A stretch of DNA of 64,000 nt from an uncultured Rhodospirillales bacterium (GTDB lineage: Bacteria; Pseudomonadota; Alphaproteobacteria; Azospirillales; Azospirillaceae), in NCBI GenBank assembly GCA_903927615.1, contig CAIYNU010000022.1, forward strand, positions 1 through 64,000. The letters are read 5' to 3'. Below, in pieces: positions 3,559 through 16,632 of this stretch. The first letter of the stretch is position 1. Every line of letters starts with the position of its first letter. Position numbers and translations under genes: made by a program. The notes under the pieces were generated by a model. It saw only the letters and a list, made by a program, of their open reading frames with translations. It was not told where the DNA came from and made no database searches.

Positions 3559-4827
<1,269 letters not shown>

Positions 4828-5676: not shown

Positions 5677-5934
5677 ATGATTAGGGTCACTATTACGCAA
5701 AACTGTCGCGGAGAAATCACCAAAATCTGCGCTGATGAACCAATCGAACTTTACTACGTCAATCCGCACATATCTAACGATCGTAATTACCTCTGCGACG
5801 ATGTTGAAGTCGGCGCCCGGTCAGTTGACGCGGAACTCGGAGGAGTGGAAATCGGTCATCAGCATGACGGCACATTCGCCGAAGACGGAGAACCCATGTT
5901 GCCGAAATTAGGTCCATCGATCAGGACACACTGA
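5677..5934 (+). CDS. Small hypothetical protein
   Basis: An 85-residue acidic protein of unknown function (starts MIRVTITQNCRGEITK). ATG is preceded by TTGGAGG at 7 bases, the best ribosome-binding site in this part of the island, which is the main reason to accept it. No signal peptide, membrane segment or recognised motif. A longer frame starting upstream at 5629 lacks a binding site. Confidence 0.5.
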   Translation: MIRVTITQNCRGEITKICADEPIELYYVNPHISNDRNYLCDDVEVGARSVDAELGGVEIGHQHDGTFAEDGEPMLPKLGPSIRTH

Positions 5935-6074: not shown

Positions 6075-6575
6075 ATGTGTTTGCCCCACCGCGAACCGGG
6101 CCATCCGCAGCGCCTTTTTAGTTCGCCCCAGACAGGCTCGGGCGCGACGGTCGCCAAGACTCCGGCGGCAGACAGGCGCCCGATTTCGGTCAGAGTCTCG
6201 GGGGCGATGCCGATCCAAGCTGAAGCCGCGAACCTGCCGACCCGCAGGATGCGCAGCGTATCGACACGCAGACTGCCGCCGACATGGCGGATGATCCGGG
6301 CCACGAGGTCGGTCGTGCCGCAGATGCTCGTCGAGCGTGACATATGGACCGACGCCACCATGCCCGGTCCTGGCCGGGGCGTGCTCCTCGCGGGCTTCGG
6401 AATGAAGGAAGACCGGGAAATCGCGGCCGACCTGAAGGAAGCCCAGGGCAAGCATCTTGTCCGGGGTGGACCCGACCACCACCCGACCGCGGTCCCGGCA
6501 CAGGAGGCTCGGCAGCAGGTCACGGACGGTGCTGCCGACGAGGACTGTCTGAATCATTGCCACTCCGGTGGTCAT
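6075..6575 (-). pseudogene. cca: CCA-adding enzyme (tRNA nucleotidyltransferase), degraded
   Basis: The first 60 codons from ATG 6557 read as a typical class II nucleotidyltransferase start ([55 protein letters not shown]). The frame then shifts: from about 6290 to 6110 another minus frame continues with [19 protein letters not shown] and PVWGELKR, the neck and body region of the same family. The catalytic DxD strand reads DRGRVVV rather than DRDWVVV, and the segment between the two pieces is deleted. The upstream ATG at 6575 overlaps the rtcA stop (ATGA), so the gene was once translationally coupled to rtcA. This implies a former RNA-repair operon that also restored tRNA 3' CCA ends. Confidence 0.75.
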
Positions 6576-7588
6576 GTGCCGATCGTAACCAGAAAGGCGC
6601 CGTTCGGATGGCGGTCGAAGCGGATGGCTGCGTCGAGAAAGCGCCGGATGATATCTGCGGCGGTCTGGGTATGCTTGGTCGGGGATACGGTCGTGAAGGT
6701 CCCGCGCCCCGCCATGGCCATGGGCAGGAGCAGTTGGTCGGCGAGGTACGGGCCGGCGAAGGCCGCCGAGTTCAGGTAGCCCAGCATCCGTGTGGCGGCC
6801 TGGCTCCCGATGCTTTGCGCGGGGACACCGAGTTGGCCGAAGCCGGTCACGATCTCCGTCACGTGTTCGAACACCGCTTCGAGGAGGAGGACGTTACCGG
6901 GGCCGACGGGGTTGGACAGACGTTCCAGGCGGAAGGCCGATTCGGGCCAGTCCAGGATCGCCCGCGCACTGGCGAGTTCCCGCATGCCGATGTCGTCGTC
7001 CAGCAAGGCCATGACGGCGGTGGCGCCGACATCGACCGGATTGCCGCGCTCGATCAGGTCGACGGGCATCAATGGTGCCGGCTCGATTTCAATGTCGATC
7101 CGACCACCTCCCGCGGGATAGAAGCCGTGGCGGACCAGACGCGCGGTGACAAGCGGTCCCATGCGCCGGAGCAGCGGCAGGTAGGTGCGGTCGATGAAGT
7201 CGAACGGCGGTGCATGGGTGTTGTGGGTGCCTCCCTCGATCGTCAACCGGGACGGCCGATCAGCCAGCAGCAGCGGCGGCAGGATGGTCTGGAGGACGAG
7301 TCCGGCGCTGCCGGCCGTGCCCACGGCAAAGCGATAGTCGCCGGCAACGATGCGTCCGGGCTTGAACACGATGCTGCGGGCACCCACGGCGACGCCCTCG
7401 CAGACGGCGCTGCCGATGGCGCAGGCGGCCTCGATCGCCGTGACATGCTGCCGCATCAGTCCGGATTTGCTGCGGTTCGCCCGGATGTTGTCGATGCGGA
7501 AGGGCTGATCGGTGACCAGGGACAAGGCGAGTGCATTGCGCACCATCTGCCCGCCGCCTTCCCCTTCCGACCCGTCGATTGTGATCAC
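6572..7588 (-). CDS. rtcA: RNA 3'-terminal phosphate cyclase RtcA
   Basis: A 338-residue cyclase converting RNA 3'-phosphate (or 2'-phosphate) ends to 2',3'-cyclic phosphate through an enzyme-AMP intermediate. Family marks: [13 protein letters not shown] at residues 5-17, [15 protein letters not shown] near 91-104, [11 protein letters not shown] near 121-130, HGFYPAGGG, and the adenylated His306 in SPTKHTQTA. The length is normal. It lies 31 bases downstream of rtcB and just upstream of the degraded cca, in the sigma54-controlled rsr operon. Start ATG at 7588 follows a purine-rich GGGGGAGACAGG leader. Confidence 0.95.
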
Positions 7589-7619: not shown

Positions 7620-8846
7620 TCAGCCCTTCACGCACAAGACCTGTTTCAATGTGTGGATAATCTCCACGAGATCCGACTGGGCCGCCATCACCGCTTCGAT
7701 CGGCTTGTACGCCGCCGGGGTTTCGTCGATCACCCCGGGATCCTGGCGGCAGTCCACGCCGACCGTTGCGGCGATGTGGTCCTCGACGGTGAATCGCTTG
7801 AGTGCCTCGTGCCGGGACATCAACCGCCCGGCACCGTGGGAGCAACTGTCGAACGACTCCTTGTTGCCCAACCCCCGCACGATGAACGACCGTGCGCCCA
7901 TGCTGCCCGGGATGATTCCCATCGTCCCCTTGGCCGCCCGAACCGCCCCCTTGCGCGTGACCAGGATATTCTGGCCGAAATGATGTTCGCGCGTGACGTA
8001 GTTGTGGTGGCAGTTGATGGCTTCCACATCGGCCTCGAACGGCTTGCCGATGACACGCCTCATCGCCCCGATGATGGCGGCCATCATCAGCCTGCGGTTC
8101 AACGCCGCGAAATCCTGCGCCCAGCCGACAGCTTCGACGTAATCGTCGAAATGTTGCGTGCCTTCGGGAAAATACGCGAGATCCTCATCGGGAAGATTGA
8201 TGTACCAGCGGCGCATATCCTGCTTGGCCAGCTCGATGAAGAATTGGCCGATGGCATTGCCGATCCCCCTCGACCCCGAGTGCAGCATCACCCACACGTG
8301 GTCGTTCTCATCCAGGCAGACCTCGATGAAGTGATTGCCGGTGCCCAACGTCCCCAGATGGGTCACGGTGTTGGCCTTGGCCAGCTTCGGGTATTTCACC
8401 AAGATCGCATCAAAGCGCTCACCGAGGCCGGTCCAGGCGGCGGTAATTTCCGGCGGCGGTTCGCCCCAGGACCCGGGGTCGCGCTTGCCCCGACCGACAT
8501 CCCGGCCGTGGGGGATCGCGCGCTCGATCTCTCCGCGCAGGTCTTTCGGGGTGTCGGGCAGGTCCGAGGCGACCAGCGTGGTGCAGGCCGCCATCATTCC
8601 GCAACCGATGTCTACGCCGACGGCCGCGGGTATCACCGCCCCCTTGGTCGGAATGACCGATCCCACGGTGGCGCCGATGCCGACATGGACGTCGGGCATC
8701 ACCGCCACGTGCTTGACGATGAACGGCATGCGGGCCACGCGTTCGAGTTGCAGACGCGCCGCCGGGTCGACCGGAACGCCGCGGGTCCATGCCTTGATGG
8801 GCAGGCCGCCTTCGACCGCCGTGAATTCGAATCCCTGATCCACCAT
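7620..8846 (-). CDS. rtcB: RNA-splicing ligase RtcB
   Basis: A 408-residue GTP- and Mn2+-dependent ligase joining 2',3'-cyclic phosphate or 3'-phosphate ends to 5'-OH ends, for example in cleaved tRNA or rRNA. Metal and catalytic motifs are all visible: GVDIGCGM (Asp79, Cys82), GTGNHFIE (His172), HSGSRG (His189), NCHHNYV (His280/281) and SCSHGAGR with His337 as the GMP-accepting residue. ATG at 8846 has GAGGAGG 3-4 bases upstream. It directly follows the predicted Y RNA array, so the RNAs and ligase are probably on one transcript with rsr. Confidence 0.97.
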   Translation of the reverse strand: MVDQGFEFTAVEGGLPIKAWTRGVPVDPAARLQLERVARMPFIVKHVAVMPDVHVGIGATVGSVIPTKGAVIPAAVGVDIGCGMMAACTTLVASDLPDTPKDLRGEIERAIPHGRDVGRGKRDPGSWGEPPPEITAAWTGLGERFDAILVKYPKLAKANTVTHLGTLGTGNHFIEVCLDENDHVWVMLHSGSRGIGNAIGQFFIELAKQDMRRWYINLPDEDLAYFPEGTQHFDDYVEAVGWAQDFAALNRRLMMAAIIGAMRRVIGKPFEADVEAINCHHNYVTREHHFGQNILVTRKGAVRAAKGTMGIIPGSMGARSFIVRGLGNKESFDSCSHGAGRLMSRHEALKRFTVEDHIAATVGVDCRQDPGVIDETPAAYKPIEAVMAAQSDLVEIIHTLKQVLCVKG

Positions 8847-8872
8847 AGCCTCCTCGGTTCAGGTTCGGGTGT

Positions 8873-9010
8873 GGCACGTACGGCGACGAGAGGGTGACGG
8901 AACACGGCCCCGACCCGTTTTCCGGGCCATGGGCCACACAGCGTTTTGAGCCGTGTCCGGGGCTTGAACCCAGTTCACCATGTAGTCCCGTCGGCATTCG
9001 CCGAGGTGCC
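8873..9010 (-). ncRNA. Y-RNA-like RNA 3 (T-arm-bearing)
   Basis: Read on the minus strand, the ends pair as GGCAC-CGGCGA with TCGCCG-GTGCC (short internal loop). Inside this, GACGGGA pairs with TTCCGTC, forming the two-helix stem expected of a Ro60-binding Y RNA. The same GGCGAATGCCG..GGGA.TACAT block begins all three RNAs here. The loop contains a T-arm mimic (CTGGG TTCAAGC CCCGG) and a further helix ACACGGC/GCCGTGT capped by a GAAAA hairpin. No D-arm is obvious. Ends are predicted from pairing only. Confidence 0.6.
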
Positions 9011-9093
9011 CGTCATCGGCGACGAGAATTTGTCGGGAGATACCGAGCCTCGCGGCTCCATGGATGTACTCCCGGCGGCATTCGCCGATGACG
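9011..9093 (-). ncRNA. Y-RNA-like RNA 2 (short form)
   Basis: The terminal helix is a perfect 12-bp pairing, CGTCATCGGCGA with TCGCCGATGACG. An inner helix CGGGAGTAC/GTA-CTCCCG and a small GAGCC-GCGA-GGCTC tetraloop hairpin complete it. It shares the AATGCCG..GGGAGTACAT block with its two neighbours but lacks any tRNA-like module. Its predicted 3' end touches the predicted 5' end of RNA 3 exactly, which suggests processing from a common precursor. Confidence 0.6.
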
Positions 9094-9111
9094 AAGGAAT
9101 AAATCAAGAGG

Positions 9112-9236
9112 GGTCGTGGCGACGAGTTCTGCGAGACAGTTTCATGCTCTACCACTGAGCTACGGGCCGAAACCCGGTCGGATTCGAACCGACGACCTTG
9201 AAGTTCGATGTAGTCCCTGCGGCATTCGCCACGGCC
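9112..9236 (-). ncRNA. Y-RNA-like RNA 1 with tRNA-like module (YrlA-type)
   Basis: Terminal helix CGTGGCGA/TCGCCACG, then an inner helix GC(A)GGGAC/GTCTCGC with one bulged base. The large loop holds a canonical T-arm (GTCGG TTCGAAT CCGAC, 9177-9193) followed by CGGG-TTTC-GGCCCG and a canonical D-arm (GCTC AGTGGTA GAGC, 9146-9160), in the order T-arm then D-arm. Bacterial YrlA RNAs carry such tRNA-mimicking modules and are encoded beside rsr. This is not a functional tRNA: there is no anticodon arm and the arm order is permuted. The 5' end lies about 10 bases after the rsr stop. Confidence 0.72.
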
Positions 9237-9246
9237 GACGCATCTT

Positions 9247-10794
9247 TTACACTACGGTCTCCATGATTTCGCCGACCCAATCCTTCCCAGGCAGCCCGGC
9301 GGCAAACCGGGCCACGGTTTCGAACACGGCATCCGAGAAGCCGCCGACATTGAGAATGTCGGCTCTCTCTTGGGCCTGGGTCGTCCCGTGGGGTTGGAGG
9401 TCGATGCACACAAGTTTCGTCCCCGGGCAGCGCTTCTTCAGACGGCTCCACTCGTTCATCGTCGCGGTGGCCCCATGGCCGTGCTGCGCGTCGATCCAGG
9501 ACTGGTTGTCCGATACGATGACGACCAGATCGACCTCCGTCCGGTCGGCATTGAGTCTCGCCAACGGTGCCGAGACATTCGTTCCGCCACCCCCGATCGC
9601 CGCAAGCCTGGCCGCGTTGACGGCAACCCGCGCGAGCGGATACAGGTCAAGTGCGACGACCTCCTGGGCAAACGGCATCACCCGTGTCCCGGGAGTCCGG
9701 CGCATGATCGCCGCTGCGGTCAGGGCCGCGACATCGATGCACCGAACCTTCGACGAGGCCCCCTTGCGGTACCCGGTCAGTGGCGAGGACATGGACCCCG
9801 AGACATCGGGCGCCACCACCACCCGTCCCGGAACCGTCGGCACGCCGGTCAGCGACCGATCCAGCGCCTCTTCCAGGGCGGCCTGGATCGTCAGCGGGAC
9901 AGCCCCGTCGACGGTCCCCAGGGCAACCTGCAATTGGTACGGCATCACCCTGGCCCTCGACTGTGCCTCCGCGTCGGACAACCGGTCCGCAACCCGGGCG
10001 GCGACGCCGTCGACCTGGAACACCCCATGACGTGCCAGGGTGTTCAGATTCATGCGGAGCGCCTGCCATCCCATCCGATCCACGAGTTCGACCCACTGCG
10101 GGGTGGTCAGCGGTTCGGCCGTGAGCCATTCGAACGGGACGGCCGGCAGGGGCTGCGAACGATCCCGCTTCCAGGCCTCGAACCCGGCAATCTCCAAGGG
10201 CAATGCGGCAACGTCATAGGGACGGCCGAGCAGCCACCCGTAGAACGCCCGCCGCGCCGGATCGGTTGGTCGCGGATGAACCATCCTGACGATGTCGGCC
10301 AGGGACGGGTCCTTGCCCACCGAGGCCTTCATCAGCGTCTCTATCGAGGCCTTCTCCAGCCACTGCTGAACCAACCGCTTCGGACGTGTTCCGAGTGAGG
10401 TCCGGCCCACTACGCCCGAGCGCATGATCTGCACGAAGGTGCGGAGCATCCTCCCGCTGTCGATCACCCGGCTGAACACCCTGATCGCCAGGTCCGGTTC
10501 GCTGACCGTCAGCCACGCCGCGAGCAGCGTCGGCATATCCTTCATCGCGCCCTTCGAGCGTGCATAGACGGCGGCTCGGGCCACGAACGCCGGGTCGACA
10601 GCCTTGACCAAGCCCATCACGTGCGCCAGTTGCGTGTCCGCCCCACTGTAGAAGTTGTCCTGGAGCGTTCCGGTCGCCGCAAGCTGAGCCAACTTGTGCC
10701 GGGGTTCGTAACCATAGGCCGGGGCCATCTCGCAGTTCAGCGTGTCTGCCTTTGGCAGTGCCCGTGCCGACGCGAAAAGCTGCTTGTTCGCCAT
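9247..10794 (-). CDS. rsr: Ro60 family TROVE-vWA RNA-binding protein Rsr
   Basis: A 515-residue ortholog of Ro60. Residues about 15-340 form the TROVE ring of helical repeats (YGYEPRHKLAQLA, DTQLAHVMGLVKAVDPAF, VGRTSLGTRPKRLVQQWL). The rest is a vWA domain with a MIDAS site (DVSGSMSS, then GGGGTNVSAPL and VSDNQSW). Ro proteins bind misfolded RNAs through the ring and Y RNAs on its outside, and in bacteria Rsr with Y RNA tethers PNPase for structured-RNA decay. ATG at 10794 has GGGAGGGAG just upstream. The longer frame to 10890 would overlap the sigma54 promoter and is rejected. It heads the operon to Y RNAs, rtcB, rtcA and cca. Confidence 0.95.
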   Translation of the reverse strand: MANKQLFASARALPKADTLNCEMAPAYGYEPRHKLAQLAATGTLQDNFYSGADTQLAHVMGLVKAVDPAFVARAAVYARSKGAMKDMPTLLAAWLTVSEPDLAIRVFSRVIDSGRMLRTFVQIMRSGVVGRTSLGTRPKRLVQQWLEKASIETLMKASVGKDPSLADIVRMVHPRPTDPARRAFYGWLLGRPYDVAALPLEIAGFEAWKRDRSQPLPAVPFEWLTAEPLTTPQWVELVDRMGWQALRMNLNTLARHGVFQVDGVAARVADRLSDAEAQSRARVMPYQLQVALGTVDGAVPLTIQAALEEALDRSLTGVPTVPGRVVVAPDVSGSMSSPLTGYRKGASSKVRCIDVAALTAAAIMRRTPGTRVMPFAQEVVALDLYPLARVAVNAARLAAIGGGGTNVSAPLARLNADRTEVDLVVIVSDNQSWIDAQHGHGATATMNEWSRLKKRCPGTKLVCIDLQPHGTTQAQERADILNVGGFSDAVFETVARFAAGLPGKDWVGEIMETVV

Positions 10795-10853: not shown

Positions 10854-10869
10854 TGCATCGCTCGTGCCA
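10854..10869 (-). promoter_or_regulatory. Sigma54 promoter of the rsr operon
   Basis: On the minus strand the bases read TGGCACGAGCGATGCA, matching the consensus TGGCACG-N4-TTGCA at all positions except one T, with exact GG-GC spacing. It lies 60 bases before the rsr ATG, and the divergent gene encodes the sigma54 activator RtcR, so the assignment is supported by sequence and context. Confidence 0.8.
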
Positions 10870-10946
10870 TCCACCCCGGTTCGCGCCCACCCGCGTTCAA
10901 CCACTTCATCTGACTGGCACTTTCCGGGCGTCGGAGGAATCGGTTC

Positions 10947-11006: not shown

Positions 11007-12626
11007 ATGAGACCCCTGACCGTCATCGGATTTATCGGTTCGACACTGGACGCCAGCAAGTTCGGCCCGACCCGCTGGAACAAGTGGCGGCCTTCGGTCG
11101 GGCTGTGCATGCATGAAGACCTGCGGGTGGATCGCTTCGTTCTCCTTTACGGGGCCAAGCACAAACAGCTTGCCCTCCATGTCATGGGCGACATTGCTAC
11201 GGTATCTCCTGAAACGAAAGTCGACCTGCGCCTGCTGGAGTTCCACGATCCATGGGATTTCGAGGAGGTGTACGGCAAGCTTCTCGATTTCTCCCGGGCA
11301 TTCCCGTTTGACACCGAGCATCAGGACTATCTGATCCACATCACCACGGGGACCCATGTCATCCAGATTTGCCTGTTCCTGCTGACCGAGGCCCGCTTCC
11401 TTCCAGGCAGGCTACTGCAAACCCAGCCAAGGCAGTCGCAGCCCGATGGCGGCCAGAGCGGATGGAGCGTCATCGACCTGGACCTGTCGCGGTACGACAG
11501 CATCGCCACCAGATTTGCCGTCGCGGCCGCCGAGGGATCGTCATTCCTGAAGTCGGGCATAGATACCCGGAATTCGGCCTTCAACCGGATGATCGACGAG
11601 ATCGAACAGGTCGCGGTCCGCAGCCGCGCGGCCTTGCTGCTGATGGGGCCGACCGGTGCCGGCAAGAGCAAGCTGGCGCGCCGCATCTACGAACTCAAGC
11701 GCCTCAAGCATCAGGTCTCCGGCCCCTTCGTCGAAGTCAATTGCGCCACCCTGCGCGGAGACGGTGCCATGTCGGCCTTGTTCGGTCACCGCAAGGGGGC
11801 CTTTACCGGGGCCGTCACCGACCGTCCCGGCCTGCTGCGTTCTGCGGACAAGGGCGTCTTGTTCCTGGACGAGATCGGCGAGTTGGGGATCGACGAACAG
11901 GCCATGATCCTCCGGGCCGTCGAAGACAAGACCTTCCTTCCGGTCGGATCCGACAAGGAGGCGTCGTCCGATTTCCAGTTGATTGCCGGAACCAACCGCG
12001 ACCTTGGCCGCGAAGTCGCCGCCGGACGCTTCCGTGATGACCTTTATGCCAGGATGAACCTCTGGACCTTCGCGCTGCCCGGCTTGGCGGAGCGGCGCGA
12101 GGACATCGAACCCAATCTCGACTACGAACTCGATCGTTACGCTGAACGGGAGGGTGCGCGGGTGACGTTCAACAAGGAAGCCCGCGCGCGCTATCTGGCC
12201 TTCGCCACATCCTCGGACGCCGTCTGGTCAGGCAATTTCCGGGATCTGGCCGCCAGCATCACCCGGATGGCCACGCTGGCATTGTCCGGGCGCATCGACA
12301 CCGGCACCGTCGAAGCCGAAATCGCTCGGTTGCGCCGACTTTGGTCCAACACGTCCCTCGCGGCGCCCGATGACCTTGATCGTCTGCTCGGCCCCGAGGC
12401 GGCGGAAGCCCTCGATCTGGTCGACCGCGTTCAGTTGGCCGAAGTCGTCCGCATCTGCCGGAAAAGCCGATCGCTCTCGGATGCCGGCCGAACCCTCTAC
12501 AGCGCCTCGCGCTCGAGACGGCTCTCGACCAACGACGCCGATCGTCTGCGCAAGTATCTCCAGCGGTTTGGCCTCGACTGGACCAGCGTGACCTTCCTTG
12601 GCGATCCCGGAGCATCCGGGAGGTGA
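11007..12626 (+). CDS. rtcR: Sigma54-dependent activator RtcR (CARF sensor, AAA+)
   Basis: A 539-residue regulator of the RNA-repair operon. Residues 1-180 are the RtcR-type CARF sensor (TVIGFIGSTLD near the start, HITTGTHVIQICLFLLTE at 111-128). The AAA+ domain has Walker A GPTGAGKS (214-221), the sigma54-contacting GAFTGA loop (264-269) and Walker B LFLDEIGEL. The C-terminus is a short DNA-binding region. In E. coli RtcR responds to RNA ends bearing 2',3'-cyclic phosphate; the same is inferred here. It is transcribed divergently from rsr, facing a near-perfect sigma54 promoter. Confidence 0.96.
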   Translation: MRPLTVIGFIGSTLDASKFGPTRWNKWRPSVGLCMHEDLRVDRFVLLYGAKHKQLALHVMGDIATVSPETKVDLRLLEFHDPWDFEEVYGKLLDFSRAFPFDTEHQDYLIHITTGTHVIQICLFLLTEARFLPGRLLQTQPRQSQPDGGQSGWSVIDLDLSRYDSIATRFAVAAAEGSSFLKSGIDTRNSAFNRMIDEIEQVAVRSRAALLLMGPTGAGKSKLARRIYELKRLKHQVSGPFVEVNCATLRGDGAMSALFGHRKGAFTGAVTDRPGLLRSADKGVLFLDEIGELGIDEQAMILRAVEDKTFLPVGSDKEASSDFQLIAGTNRDLGREVAAGRFRDDLYARMNLWTFALPGLAERREDIEPNLDYELDRYAEREGARVTFNKEARARYLAFATSSDAVWSGNFRDLAASITRMATLALSGRIDTGTVEAEIARLRRLWSNTSLAAPDDLDRLLGPEAAEALDLVDRVQLAEVVRICRKSRSLSDAGRTLYSASRSRRLSTNDADRLRKYLQRFGLDWTSVTFLGDPGASGR

Positions 12627-12793
12627 TCTGCGGCGGCCGCAACACCCATACAGGCTGTTCGCAGGGAATGGTGCCGTCCCGGGCCTGACAATGGCGGCGC
12701 GGAAAGCGCCCGATCGGCTCCGGCAACCGGAAGCCCCGCCAGTTGCCCTTGCGGAAGGCGATCAGATATGCGCGTCGGCGGCGTGAAACGGCG

Positions 12794-13369
12794 CCCTGCC
12801 AGCCTTCCGGCGGAGTTCCGTACCGGCGTGCCCGTTGTTCTGAAGAAGTGGTGCTCACCGCGCCCGGTCGTCTGCGACAATGTGGGCGGCAACTCACCAA
12901 GAATGGCGTTCAGCCGCTCAAGGCTTGCCCGCCCGTCGTCACCGTCGCTATCCAGCACCCAAACGCCGCTTGCCGCTCCCGTGGCCAGCCCCCAGTTGCA
13001 TCCCGGGAACTGGCGCATCCAGGCTTCGATCTGCGCAGGGTCATTGGTGGCGGCTTCGCGCCATGCGACGAAGGGGTGCTTTCCGGCCCGGACTTTGCCG
13101 TGCTGGTCGGGGGTGTTGCAGTCGGGGTTGCCGCAGGTGCAACGGCCATTCATGATGCCCGCGACCGGGAACACCTTTGCGCCAGGGATAAGCCGGAGCG
13201 TGTCCCAGAGCGTCGGTTGTGCCGCTCGGGCCGCCTGCTCTTGGGCTGCTGCGGCTCTTTGCGCAGCCATAGCATCAGCGAAGGACTGTTCGCGGCGAAC
13301 GGGTTCAGCAGCGAGCCCCTGCGGAACTGCATCGGGTGGGGGTGGCCGCCTATTACGCACTTGTTGCAT
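12794..13369 (-). pseudogene. Bifunctional prim-pol DNA primase/polymerase, 3'-truncated
   Basis: From ATG 13369 (GGAG 7 bases upstream) the frame encodes a prim-pol N-terminal domain: CTCGNPDCNTPDQHGKVRAG (a Cys-rich insert), GKHPFVAWREAATNDPAQI, the acidic motif WVLDSDGDDG, and GRGEHHFFRTTGTPVRNSAG. After about residue 192 (12794) homology stops. The frame runs on as unrelated sequence to 12497, inside the antisense of rtcR. Intact relatives are phage or plasmid replication primases of 700 residues or more, so this is a replication-gene stub marking an old phage-like element. Confidence 0.75.
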
Positions 13370-13928
13370 GACACTCTCCAAGGTCAGAAAACACGCCTTG
13401 GAGGACTAGACAGATGTGAAGAAGCACCCCATATTCGGGTCGTGACGTTCTTGTTTCTTCTTCGCGATCCGGACCAGTCCTCAGGGGATTGCGATCGGAG
13501 CCCAGGGTGCCCCAACCCTGGGCTCCAACCTTTTCCAGCATATGGGTTTGCTTTATAAGAAGCGCAAGTCTCGCGCTGCTAATGCTTGTCCTTGCCCTAC
13601 ATTCACGTTGCCGTTGCTTTTACGACGGTCGAGTTTGCAACATGTTGCGCTTTTCCAGCCGAACTGATTGGTGGGGGATGCCTCCGGCTTCGCAATCAAT
13701 AACCAAATCCCATTATCGTTTTTTGGTAATACGCCAAAAAACATTATTGTTGCAATGATATGATATTAATACGTCGGCGAACAAATGCGACTGCAATTAA
13801 AGGCATCATGCGGCATTTTGTCGCCCATCATTATTTCGTTTGACATCAATTTCAACACGCATTTATATATAGCAATGCGTCATTAGTGGTGTAATTTTGC
13901 TTAAAAGGCTCCGGAAAGAGGGGTGGTC
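13370..13928. other. Gene-free, partly AT-rich stretch
   Basis: Apart from the terminator-like hairpin at 13497-13526 I see no gene. From about 13680 to 13900 the sequence is unusually AT-rich for this genome, which fits foreign origin and possible MucR/H-NS-type silencing, and may supply the promoter of the membrane protein gene at 13929. Confidence 0.4.
13497..13526. terminator. Strong hairpin terminator
   Basis: A perfect 12-bp stem (GGAGCCCAGGGT and complement) with loop GCCCCA, followed on the plus strand by AACCTTTTCC. No plus-strand gene ends just upstream, so it may be a remnant of a lost gene or attenuate transcription towards the prim-pol stub. Confidence 0.6.
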
Positions 13929-15117: not shown

Positions 15118-16339
15118 CTACCGCCCGACCGGTGTCGTGCAATAGGCTGCCCAGTCGTCCATTAGCTTCCGCCTTTTGTCGAACAGGTTGCCCCGCTGAT
15201 AGGCCGCGACGACTTTGTTTTCGATGGTGTGCGCCAAGGCCGCTTCGGCAACTTCATGCGGGTAGTTGGCCCGCTCCGCAATCCACGTCCGGAAGGTCGA
15301 TCGGAAGCCGTGCGCCGTCACGTCCACCTTCATTCTTCGGAGCGTCATCTTCATTGCCATGTTTGAGAGCGGTTGACCCTTCCGCATGCCGGGGAAGACG
15401 TGCTCACCAATCCGGATGGCCGACAGCTTGTGGAGGAGAGCCAGGGCCGGGCCGGACAGCGGCACTCGATGCTCTTGGCCGGCTTTCATCCGCTCACCAG
15501 GGATTGTCCACACCCCGCCGTCGATATCGAACTCGGACCAGACCGCGTTGAGCACTTCGCCCGAGCGGCAAGCGGTGAGGATGGTGAGTTCAAGCGCACG
15601 CGCGCCAAGACCGTCCTGGATTTGCAGTTTCGGCCAGAAGGCGGGCATCTCCCTGTAATCCAGGCTGGCGTGATGTTCGACCTTCGAGACCTTGCTCGGG
15701 GCGGGCAACAAGTTATCAAGGTGGCCCTTCCAACGAGCGCAGTTCTCACCGTCACGGTGGCCAGCAACCCACCGTCACGGTGGCCAGCAACCTTGGCGTA
15801 GTCCAGGATGCTCTCAATCCGACCACGGACCCGCGATGCGGTTTCGTTCTTGGCGGTCCAGATCGGCTCCAGGACCTTCAGCACCAGACCGGTATCCACC
15901 CCGTTGACAGGAAGATTACCGATCACCGGGTAGGCATATGCCTCAAGCGTTGCTGCCCATTGAGCGCCGTGCTTCGCGTTCTTCCAACCGGCCCGATGAG
16001 CCTCGATATACCGCTCGGCAATTTCCTTGAACGTCACCGACCGGGCCACCTCAAGCGCCACAATCGCTTCCTGGGCCTTCCTGGCATCGAGGGGGTCCAC
16101 ACCCTCAGAGACGAGCTTGCGCGCGTCTGCGGCCTTCTGTCGCGCTTCGGCAAGGGAAAGCACGGTCAGGCTGCCCAACCCCATCTCACGTCGTCGGCCG
16201 GCGATCTGGTATCGGAAAAACCAGGACCGCGCCCTGGTGGGGGTGATTTGCAAATAGAGCCCGCCACCGTCCGCGTGCGTGCCGGGGGTTTCAGGGATTT
16301 TACCTTCATGGCCGTCAAGCCAGCCGCAGCCTTCGCCAT
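15118..16339 (-). pseudogene. Phage/island integrase (tyrosine recombinase), frameshifted
   Basis: A P4-type integrase of about 400 codons: N-terminal DUF4102 arm-binding domain (MKVKSLK, then GGLYLQITPT and RRREMGLGS), core-binding domain (FKEIAERYIEAH), catalytic domain with TACRSGEVL, HGFRSTFRTWIAE, LAHTIENKV and the nucleophile in AAYQRG. Two frameshifts break it: a 23-bp tandem duplication (15747-15769 repeated at 15770-15792), and a one-base shift near 16290 in a run of Cs between the start and GGGLYLQ. Deleting one duplicate restores AKVAGHRDGENCARWKGHL exactly. It lies 200 bases from the tRNA-Ser 3' end, its likely target. Confidence 0.88.
15747..15792. repeat. 23-bp perfect tandem duplication inside the integrase
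   Basis: Two identical 23-base units lie head to tail. Each contains a CACCGTCACGGTGG palindromic core, a structure prone to replication slippage. As 23 is not a multiple of three, the duplication shifts the integrase frame. It could be a recent inactivating event or a reversible switch. Confidence 0.9.

Positions 16340-16542: not shown

Positions 16543-16632
<90 letters not shown>

What the first reader, a model, noticed from the sequence alone, without database searches (positions are those of the whole stretch)
8873..9236. Three consecutive Y-RNA-like RNAs between rsr and rtcB
A block reading GGCGAATGCCG..GGGA.TACAT occurs three times on the minus strand. Each copy opens a segment whose far end carries the exact complement, giving three independent two-helix stems (8, 12 and 5+6 bp outer helices, each with an inner helix). 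Bacterial Y RNAs are known beside rsr, often one or two; three different types (with tRNA module, bare stem, T-arm only) back to back in one operon is unusual and, as far as I know, this particular array is undescribed.
Basis: partly seen in the sequence, partly recalled or inferred. Interest (0 to 1): 0.9.

Follow-up and report, generated by a model that had tools for sequence, protein, structure and literature searches.

The report
Y RNA trio in RNA-repair operon
Three small structured RNAs of a known kind (bacterial Y RNAs, two of them tRNA look-alikes) sit between the genes for their partner protein and an RNA-repair enzyme; such rows are ordinary in related bacteria, but some rows in relatives contain rearranged tRNA look-alikes without a normal anticodon loop, which may not have been described.

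Summary
In detail: three Y RNA genes fill the 400-base gap between rsr (Ro60) and rtcB, minus strand, with rtcA behind, rtcR divergent and a sigma-54-type site before rsr. Copy 1 is YrlA (68.5 bits, cut-off 69; L006 ortholog 69.5), copy 3 a diverged YrlA (41.8 bits), copy 2 a bare stem laid out like YrlB but no YrlB by Rfam (15.3 bits, cut-off 97). 'Three is unusual' fails: 78 complete rsr-rtcB spacers hold 1-6 units, 59 of 78 four or more. So: a new member of a known kind. The surprise is in relatives: by a rough classifier 105 of 328 units look like tRNAs circularly permuted at the D loop on a Y stem. Of the late-copy form, 32 of 45 are called tRNA once rotated back (early form 1 of 60; shuffles 0 of 105), and 43 of 45 lack a 7-nt anticodon loop. 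The key earlier papers were not readable here, so novelty of that class is open.

The parts
9112..9236 (-). Y RNA copy 1: canonical YrlA plan (Ro-type stem, T arm 9177-9193, acceptor hairpin 9163-9176, D arm 9146-9160)
   Evidence: Rfam YrlA 68.5 bits, E 1.6e-15; covariation over 12 sequences, 7 of 28 pairs with a change on both sides
9009..9095 (-). Y RNA copy 2: bare two-helix stem closed by the GAGCC-GCGA-GGCTC hairpin (YrlB-like layout, no tRNA module)
   Evidence: fold -42.5 kcal/mol, z -3.71, 0 of 200 shuffles as good; YrlB only 15.3 bits, E 6.1; ortholog in L006
8873..9010 (-). Y RNA copy 3: diverged YrlA; T arm 8957-8973, 7-bp hairpin in acceptor position 8936-8956, long hairpin in D-arm position 8906-8935; outermost 5-bp helix 9006-9010 with 8873-8877
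   Evidence: Rfam YrlA 8877-9004, 41.8 bits, E 8.1e-8; fold of 8876-9004 z -2.95; ortholog in L006, 94% mean column identity
9247..10794 (-). rsr, Ro60-type protein (TROVE + vWA); ATG at 10794-10792 (a longer GTG frame starts at 10890)
   Evidence: Pfam vWA_Ro60 2.1e-16, TROVE 5.4e-7 on the longer frame
7620..8846 (-). rtcB, RNA ligase
   Evidence: Pfam RtcB 3e-126; the only match at E up to 0.001 in the genome held
6572..7588 (-). rtcA, RNA 3'-phosphate cyclase
   Evidence: Pfam RTC 2.5e-73
11007..12626 (+). rtcR, sigma-54-dependent activator, divergent
   Evidence: Pfam RtcR 8.4e-80, Sigma54_activat 2.4e-48
10855..10869 (-). sigma-54-type site TGGCACGAGCGATGC, one mismatch to TGGCAC-N5-TTGC (consensus recalled); 60 bases lie between it and the rsr ATG
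   Evidence: 3 sites with at most one mismatch on this strand of the 64 kb window, so position and neighbours support it, not the match alone

Best explanation
The segment is a three-member cassette of Rsr-binding Y RNAs inside an RtcR/sigma-54-controlled RNA-repair operon. When damaged tRNAs switch on RtcR, the operon is read from before rsr and the three RNAs are cut out of the rsr-rtcB stretch. Rsr binds each through the shared lower stem; the apical parts differ, so one protein can form three different RNPs. Copy 1 imitates the tRNA elbow (T and D arms, no anticodon arm) and copy 3 a reduced version of it; these would engage tRNA-binding proteins or tether PNPase. The bare stem, copy 2, would only occupy or gate Rsr. 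Shown here: the genes, the motif, the stems, covariation of the lower stem and of copy 1, the same-strand layout, and no sigma-70 promoter or terminator match inside. Inferred from studied relatives: Rsr binding, tethering, gating, RtcR activation. Not shown: transcription as one unit, processing, expression, and the partner of each module.
For: Three exact motif copies, none elsewhere in the genome held. YrlA matches of 68.5 and 41.8 bits. rtcR, rsr, rtcB, rtcA by Pfam, sigma-54-type site before rsr. No sigma-70 promoter or terminator match in 8840-9260. Lower stem covaries when units are chosen by sequence alone: 259 units of 76 loci, 166 distinct flank pairs, positions -3/-4/-5 paired in 92/86/87% against permuted means 71/40/45% and maxima of 1000 permutations 78/51/58%. 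Copy 1 fold on 12 sequences: 94.6% of cells paired (shuffled mean 86.2), 29 double-change cells (shuffled mean 10.0), one T-stem pair with GC, CG, UA and AU. Same three units in L006. Salmonella rsr-yrlBA-rtcBA is driven by RtcR, which responds to tRNA fragments ending in 2',3'-cyclic phosphate (PMC7790460, passages).
Against: No expression or binding data. Copy 1 alone does not fold to its YrlA shape by energy (z -0.67). Copy 1 misses the YrlA cut-off by 0.5 bit, copy 3 by 27 bits, copy 2 is far below that of YrlB. On the copy 1 alignment two counts are weak: 16 of 500 shuffles reach the 7 double-change pairs and 289 of 500 the number of pair types, and two inner pairs drawn from the window fail in 6 and 10 of 12 sequences. 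Permutation does not remove relatedness. For copies 2 and 3, L006 is the only ortholog I found, so their apical parts are untested by covariation. rsr occurs in 7 of 82 genomes of the family, the window's own among them, so the cassette is dispensable.
Confidence: 0.72

Rival explanations
1. Decoys: the tRNA-like modules compete with real tRNAs for an anticodon nuclease or another tRNA-binding toxin; several backbones in one operon widen the range covered, and Rsr stabilises them.
For: In relatives, 43 of 45 late-copy D-loop-opened units lack a 7-nt anticodon loop, 32 having 4 nt. Copy 1 in the window has T and D arms and no anticodon arm. Hughes et al. 2020 saw no fragments of Salmonella YrlA when tRNAs were cleaved and name competitive inhibition of the nuclease as one possibility (PMC7790460, passages).
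Against: Early-copy units often have longer loops (41 of 60 have 9 nt or more), and two late-copy units keep a 7-nt loop with Lys anticodons. Best-matching tRNAs scatter over many isoacceptors. The window's bare stem has no tRNA part. No nuclease was tested.
Confidence: 0.25
2. Redundant copies: tandem duplicates that raise Y RNA dose, with apical differences as neutral drift.
For: The lower stem and 5' box are the part all copies share; copy number varies from 1 to 6.
Against: Apical helices covary as structures: copy 1 type (T and acceptor helices) and late-copy class D (anticodon, T and acceptor helices; 17 of 35 pairs of the whole fold with double changes).
Confidence: 0.12
3. Cis-acting hairpins of the rsr-rtcB messenger (for example setting the rsr:rtcB ratio), not free RNAs.
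For: No own promoter or terminator match; units fill a median of 89% of the spacer in 78 loci.
Against: Two copies match a family of known free RNAs, and T and D arms are not expected of a plain spacer.
Confidence: 0.06

Closest known systems
YrlA (Rfam RF02553), bacterial Y RNA with tRNA-like domain
   Same: Copy 1 aligns over the whole model: lower stem, box, T arm, acceptor hairpin, D arm. Copy 3 aligns over the whole model more weakly.
   Different: Copy 3 has a 7-bp hairpin in the acceptor position and a long hairpin instead of the D arm and stays under the family cut-off.
YrlB (Rfam RF02565)
   Same: Copy 2 has a similar 5' box and two-helix stem, and like yrlB shares its operon with a yrlA.
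   Different: 15.3 bits against a cut-off of 97. Order in Salmonella is rsr-yrlB-yrlA-rtcB-rtcA (PMC9879122, passages); here YrlA, bare stem, YrlA-like.
Salmonella rsr-yrlBA-rtcBA RNA-repair operon
   Same: rtcR divergent, sigma-54-type promoter before rsr, rsr, Y RNAs, rtcB, rtcA (PMC9879122, passages).
   Different: Three Y RNAs, not two; the window's relatives by Rsr are Alphaproteobacteria.
Circularly permuted tRNA genes
   Same: YrlA and the D-loop-opened units of relatives are tRNA-like sequences with swapped halves.
   Different: Those genes give working tRNAs (general knowledge; PMC3978253 seen in a listing only); here the ends sit on a Ro-type stem. The window has no D-loop-opened unit.

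Membership tests
YrlA (copy 1) | Encoded beside rsr | tested here: met
   copy 1 begins 10 bases after the rsr stop codon (9247-9249)
YrlA (copy 1) | Rfam gathering score 69 | tested here: inconclusive
   68.5 bits; L006 ortholog 69.5 bits
YrlA (copy 1) | T arm, acceptor hairpin, D arm above a Ro-type stem, kept by compensatory change | tested here: met
   these three helices 100% paired in 12 sequences; double changes in T (1 of 5 pairs) and acceptor (2 of 4); the D helix never varies and is silent
YrlA (copy 3) | Rfam gathering score 69 | tested here: not met
   41.8 bits; L006 ortholog 33.4 bits
YrlA (copy 3) | Complete D arm | tested here: not met
   a long hairpin stands there
YrlB (copy 2) | Rfam gathering score 97 | tested here: not met
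   15.3 bits, E 6.1
Bacterial Y RNAs (all three copies) | Lower stem kept by compensatory change | tested here: met
   pooled over units of 76 loci; copy-specific for copy 1 only
Bacterial Y RNAs (all three copies) | Stable small RNA bound to Rsr | not testable with these tools
   needs RNA sequencing and co-precipitation
RtcR-controlled RNA-repair operon | rtcR, sigma-54-type site, rtcB, rtcA together | tested here: met
   activation itself not tested

The most novel reading that the evidence does not exclude
RNA-repair operons of Alphaproteobacteria and some other Proteobacteria carry cassettes of up to six Y RNAs in which a tRNA-like ring is plugged onto the Rsr-binding stem in different circular permutations. 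YrlA has the stem where the anticodon arm was; in the alphaproteobacterial loci a second large class has it in the D loop, and its late-copy form keeps the anticodon arm but closes it with a short loop. Such cassettes would be a diversified set of disarmed tRNA mimics (adapters or decoys) made upon tRNA damage; the window's trio is a small example without the D-loop class.
Probability: 0.4. Interest if true: 0.75.

Novelty: new member of a known kind. Interest (0 to 1): 0.45.

Why it matters
The trio shows an rsr-Y RNA-rtcB cassette with three different Y RNAs that a routine annotation would miss (no Y RNA at Rfam's cut-offs). If the wider reading holds, these loci are natural sets of tRNA mimics that differ in where the tRNA ring is opened and share one protein-binding stem. 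One could then test directly what the tRNA-like part of a Y RNA is for (PNPase tether, gate, bait for tRNA enzymes, nuclease decoy), which Hughes et al. 2020 left open for this operon (PMC7790460, passages).

Tried and rejected
Single-sequence folding as proof of copy 1: rejected (z -0.67).

Protein-coding reading of the spacer (98-aa minus-strand ORF 8859-9155): set aside because it runs across all three RNA copies; no protein search was made on it.

One mimicked tRNA: against 34 distinct tRNAs of the own genome (from 30 fetched loci and the window; Rfam finds 37 in all) copy 1 is nearest to tRNA-Lys(UUU), 35 against 31 for the next, too small a margin. Over 117 distinct class A and 80 distinct class D modules of all loci, compared with the same 34 tRNAs, the best matches scatter (class A: Met 32, Asn 18; class D: Phe 22, Met 14). 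A lead only.

Island inserted at tRNA-Ser: no second copy of the last 12 or more bases of that tRNA in the window; not shown.

Limits of my own scripts. The unit finder asks for pairing and also units on reverse strands, 4 in shuffled spacers and 13 in rsr coding stretches, so some of the 328 are false; it also misses plain ones (orphans, for example in L060 and L079-L084). The classifier is rough: an earlier version gave A 113, D 88, H 55, N 48, T 24, the one used gives A 124, D 105, N 44, H 33, T 22, and some D-type units are still labelled N (L034 copy 1, L038 copy 2). The split into early and late D forms uses copy position in one of its two criteria, so their positions are partly by construction. 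Anticodon-loop lengths come from a script that extends the stem inwards.

Literature. Not held: Chen 2014, Wang 2018 (19), Sim and Wolin 2018 (20), Chen 2013 (21), Burroughs and Aravind 2016 (44, identifier recalled). Eight searches over open-licence papers; in the rows listed I saw no paper on Y RNA arrays or D-loop-opened Y RNAs. Lists were capped, and subscription papers are not covered.

Full report
What is there. On the minus strand the window reads rsr (9247-10794), a 400-base spacer, rtcB (7620-8846) and rtcA (6572-7588); rtcR is divergent on the plus strand (11007-12626). All four are named by Pfam. A sigma-54-type site, TGGCACGAGCGATGC (10855-10869), lies 60 bases before the rsr ATG. 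Rfam in permissive mode gives YrlA for copy 1 (9113-9232, 68.5 bits, E 1.6e-15) and copy 3 (8877-9004, 41.8 bits, E 8.1e-8), and an insignificant YrlB match for copy 2 (9011-9093, 15.3 bits, E 6.1). At curated cut-offs it reports no Y RNA.

Anatomy. Copy 1 has the YrlA plan: outer stem, inner stem, T arm, short acceptor hairpin, D arm. Copy 2 is two helices and a plain hairpin (z -3.71). Copy 3 has a T arm, a 7-bp hairpin in the acceptor place and a longer hairpin in the D-arm place (z -2.95). The nearest relative found, L006 (MAG Rhodospirillales bog_933, Rsr 87% identical), has the same three in the same order; mean column identity is 93% for copy 2 and 94% for copy 3. In copy 3 a T-stem pair that is T-G in the window is C-G in L006. 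The region has no sigma-70 promoter or terminator match. One operon transcript is inferred, not shown.

Compensatory change. Units chosen by sequence alone, without asking for pairing: 259 in 76 loci, 166 distinct flank pairs. Positions -3, -4 and -5 are paired in 92, 86 and 87%, against 71, 40 and 45% when the 3' sides are dealt out anew (highest of 1000: 78, 51, 58%); at -4 the types are CG 49, AT 41, GC 40, TG 6, TA 5. Relatedness is not removed by this control. For copy 1, I aligned 12 of the 16 units that share its GAGCATG context; the four left out (L007, L009 twice, L011) have differently built inserts. 94.6% of cells are paired (shuffled 86.2), 29 cells have double changes (shuffled 10.0; at most 9 when the pairing is slid), and one T-stem pair shows GC, CG, UA and AU. 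Two counts are weaker: 7 pairs with double changes are reached by 16 of 500 shuffles, and 16 further pair types by 289 of 500. The D helix does not vary and two inner pairs taken from the window fail in 6 and 10 of 12.

Is three unusual? Not here. Of 81 loci (80 found with Rsr, and the window), 78 have a complete rsr-rtcB spacer (L054, L077, L078 dropped: no rtcB seen in the stretch). They hold 1 unit in 1, 2 in 4, 3 in 14, 4 in 27, 5 in 30, 6 in 2. Over all 81 loci there are 328 units, against 8 on reverse strands, 4 in shuffled spacers and 13 in rsr coding stretches. By record title these loci are mostly Sphingomonadales; in the Pseudomonas loci (L079-L084) the finder sees 1 to 4 units and misses some, and in Chitinimonas (L085) 5. 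An evenly drawn class-wide sample gives 22 of 385 genomes with a motif match, the window's own among them. These six have rsr and an rtcB match, the latter only 26-28% identical in G189 and G252. The other 14 were not looked into. In the window's family rsr is in 7 of 82 genomes, the window's own included.

What the relatives add. By my rough classifier the 328 units are A 124 (T arm, then D arm, as in YrlA), D 105, N 44, H 33 and T 22; the window and L006 are A-H-A; 63 of 78 complete loci have at least one D. Class D reads: 3' half of a D stem, anticodon-arm hairpin, T arm, acceptor hairpin, 5' half of the D stem, that is a tRNA ring opened in the D loop. The split D stem is GCTC/GAGC in 57, GCTT/AAGC in 46, GCTT/GAGC in 2 and never GCTC/AAGC (at least three of four pairs were required). 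I split class D into an early-copy form (60) and a late-copy form (45), partly by position. For 31 of the 45 late-copy units (redundancy filter) the fold has 97.4% of cells paired (shuffled 91.8), 17 of 35 pairs with double changes (shuffled 8.5; at most 6 when slid) and 65 double-change cells (shuffled 17.4); the split D helix itself does not vary there and is silent. With the halves swapped back, ARAGORN calls a tRNA in 32 of 45 late-copy units but only 1 of 60 early-copy ones; unrotated 4 of 105, shuffled 0 of 105. The anticodon loop is 4 nt in 32 of 45 late-copy units and 7 nt in 2 of 45 (L013 copy 4, L015 copy 4, both Lys anticodons); in the early form 16 of 60 have 4 nt and 41 of 60 have 9 nt or more. 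Rfam's YrlA model does not cover class D: in seven loci with 32 units, 9 reach the cut-off, and of the 9 class D units 6 are listed at 27-37 bits and none reaches it.

Mechanism. Best reading: an RtcR-induced set of RNAs cut from the operon transcript, each bound to Rsr by the shared stem, with different apical parts giving different Rsr RNPs. Rsr binding, PNPase tethering and gating come from work in Deinococcus and Salmonella as cited in PMC7790460, PMC8394870, PMC4726728 and PMC9879122 (passages only). The decoy rival (a possibility raised for YrlA by Hughes et al. 2020) gains from the lost anticodon loops of the late form and loses from the long loops of the early form and the scatter of tRNA backbones.

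Novelty. Y RNAs beside rsr in RNA-repair operons are known, so the trio is a new member of a known kind. Whether multi-unit cassettes and the D-loop-opened class are in print I cannot say: the central papers are not held, and the open-licence searches named in Tried and rejected showed none in the rows listed.

Noticed in passing
upstream of rsr in L008, L013, L015, L016, L017, L023, L024, L026, L027, L028, L030, L033, L039, L045, L051, L054, L074: ARAGORN calls a tRNA just before rsr in 17 of 81 loci (Pro UGG 11, Trp CCA 3, Phe 1, Gln 1, one unassigned). In printed sequences a TGGCAC-type site lies further upstream and some end in CCA (by eye). The window has none.
   Followed up: partly
L010:6198-6275: A complete tRNA-Pro(UGG)-like gene between the last Y RNA and rtcB.
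   Followed up: no
L013:5962-6095 and L015:5947-6081: The only two of 105 class D units with a 7-nt anticodon loop carry Lys anticodons, CUU and UUU.
   Followed up: partly
L138 (IMGVR_UViG_3300031949_000013): A virus-of-bacteria contig stretch with five candidate Y RNA units spread over about 4 kb; the exact block that brought it in (5766-5785) got no 3' partner from the finder; no rsr or rtcB hit by the window's proteins in the stretch held.
   Followed up: partly
L131, L132, L135; L035: Compensatory swaps in the most conserved part of the stem: GGAATG with TTGTCC (L131, L132, L135), CAAATG with TTGTTG (L132), CGGATG with TCGCCG (L035).
   Followed up: no
window 15118-16253 (-), near tRNA-Ser 16543-16632: Integrase domains lie on two overlapping ORFs in different frames beside a tRNA-Ser gene; no repeat of the tRNA end in the window.
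   Followed up: partly
window 3559-4707 and 12497-13381 (-): An IstB-like ATPase C-terminal piece and a Prim-Pol N-terminal domain lie on either side of the operon.
   Followed up: no
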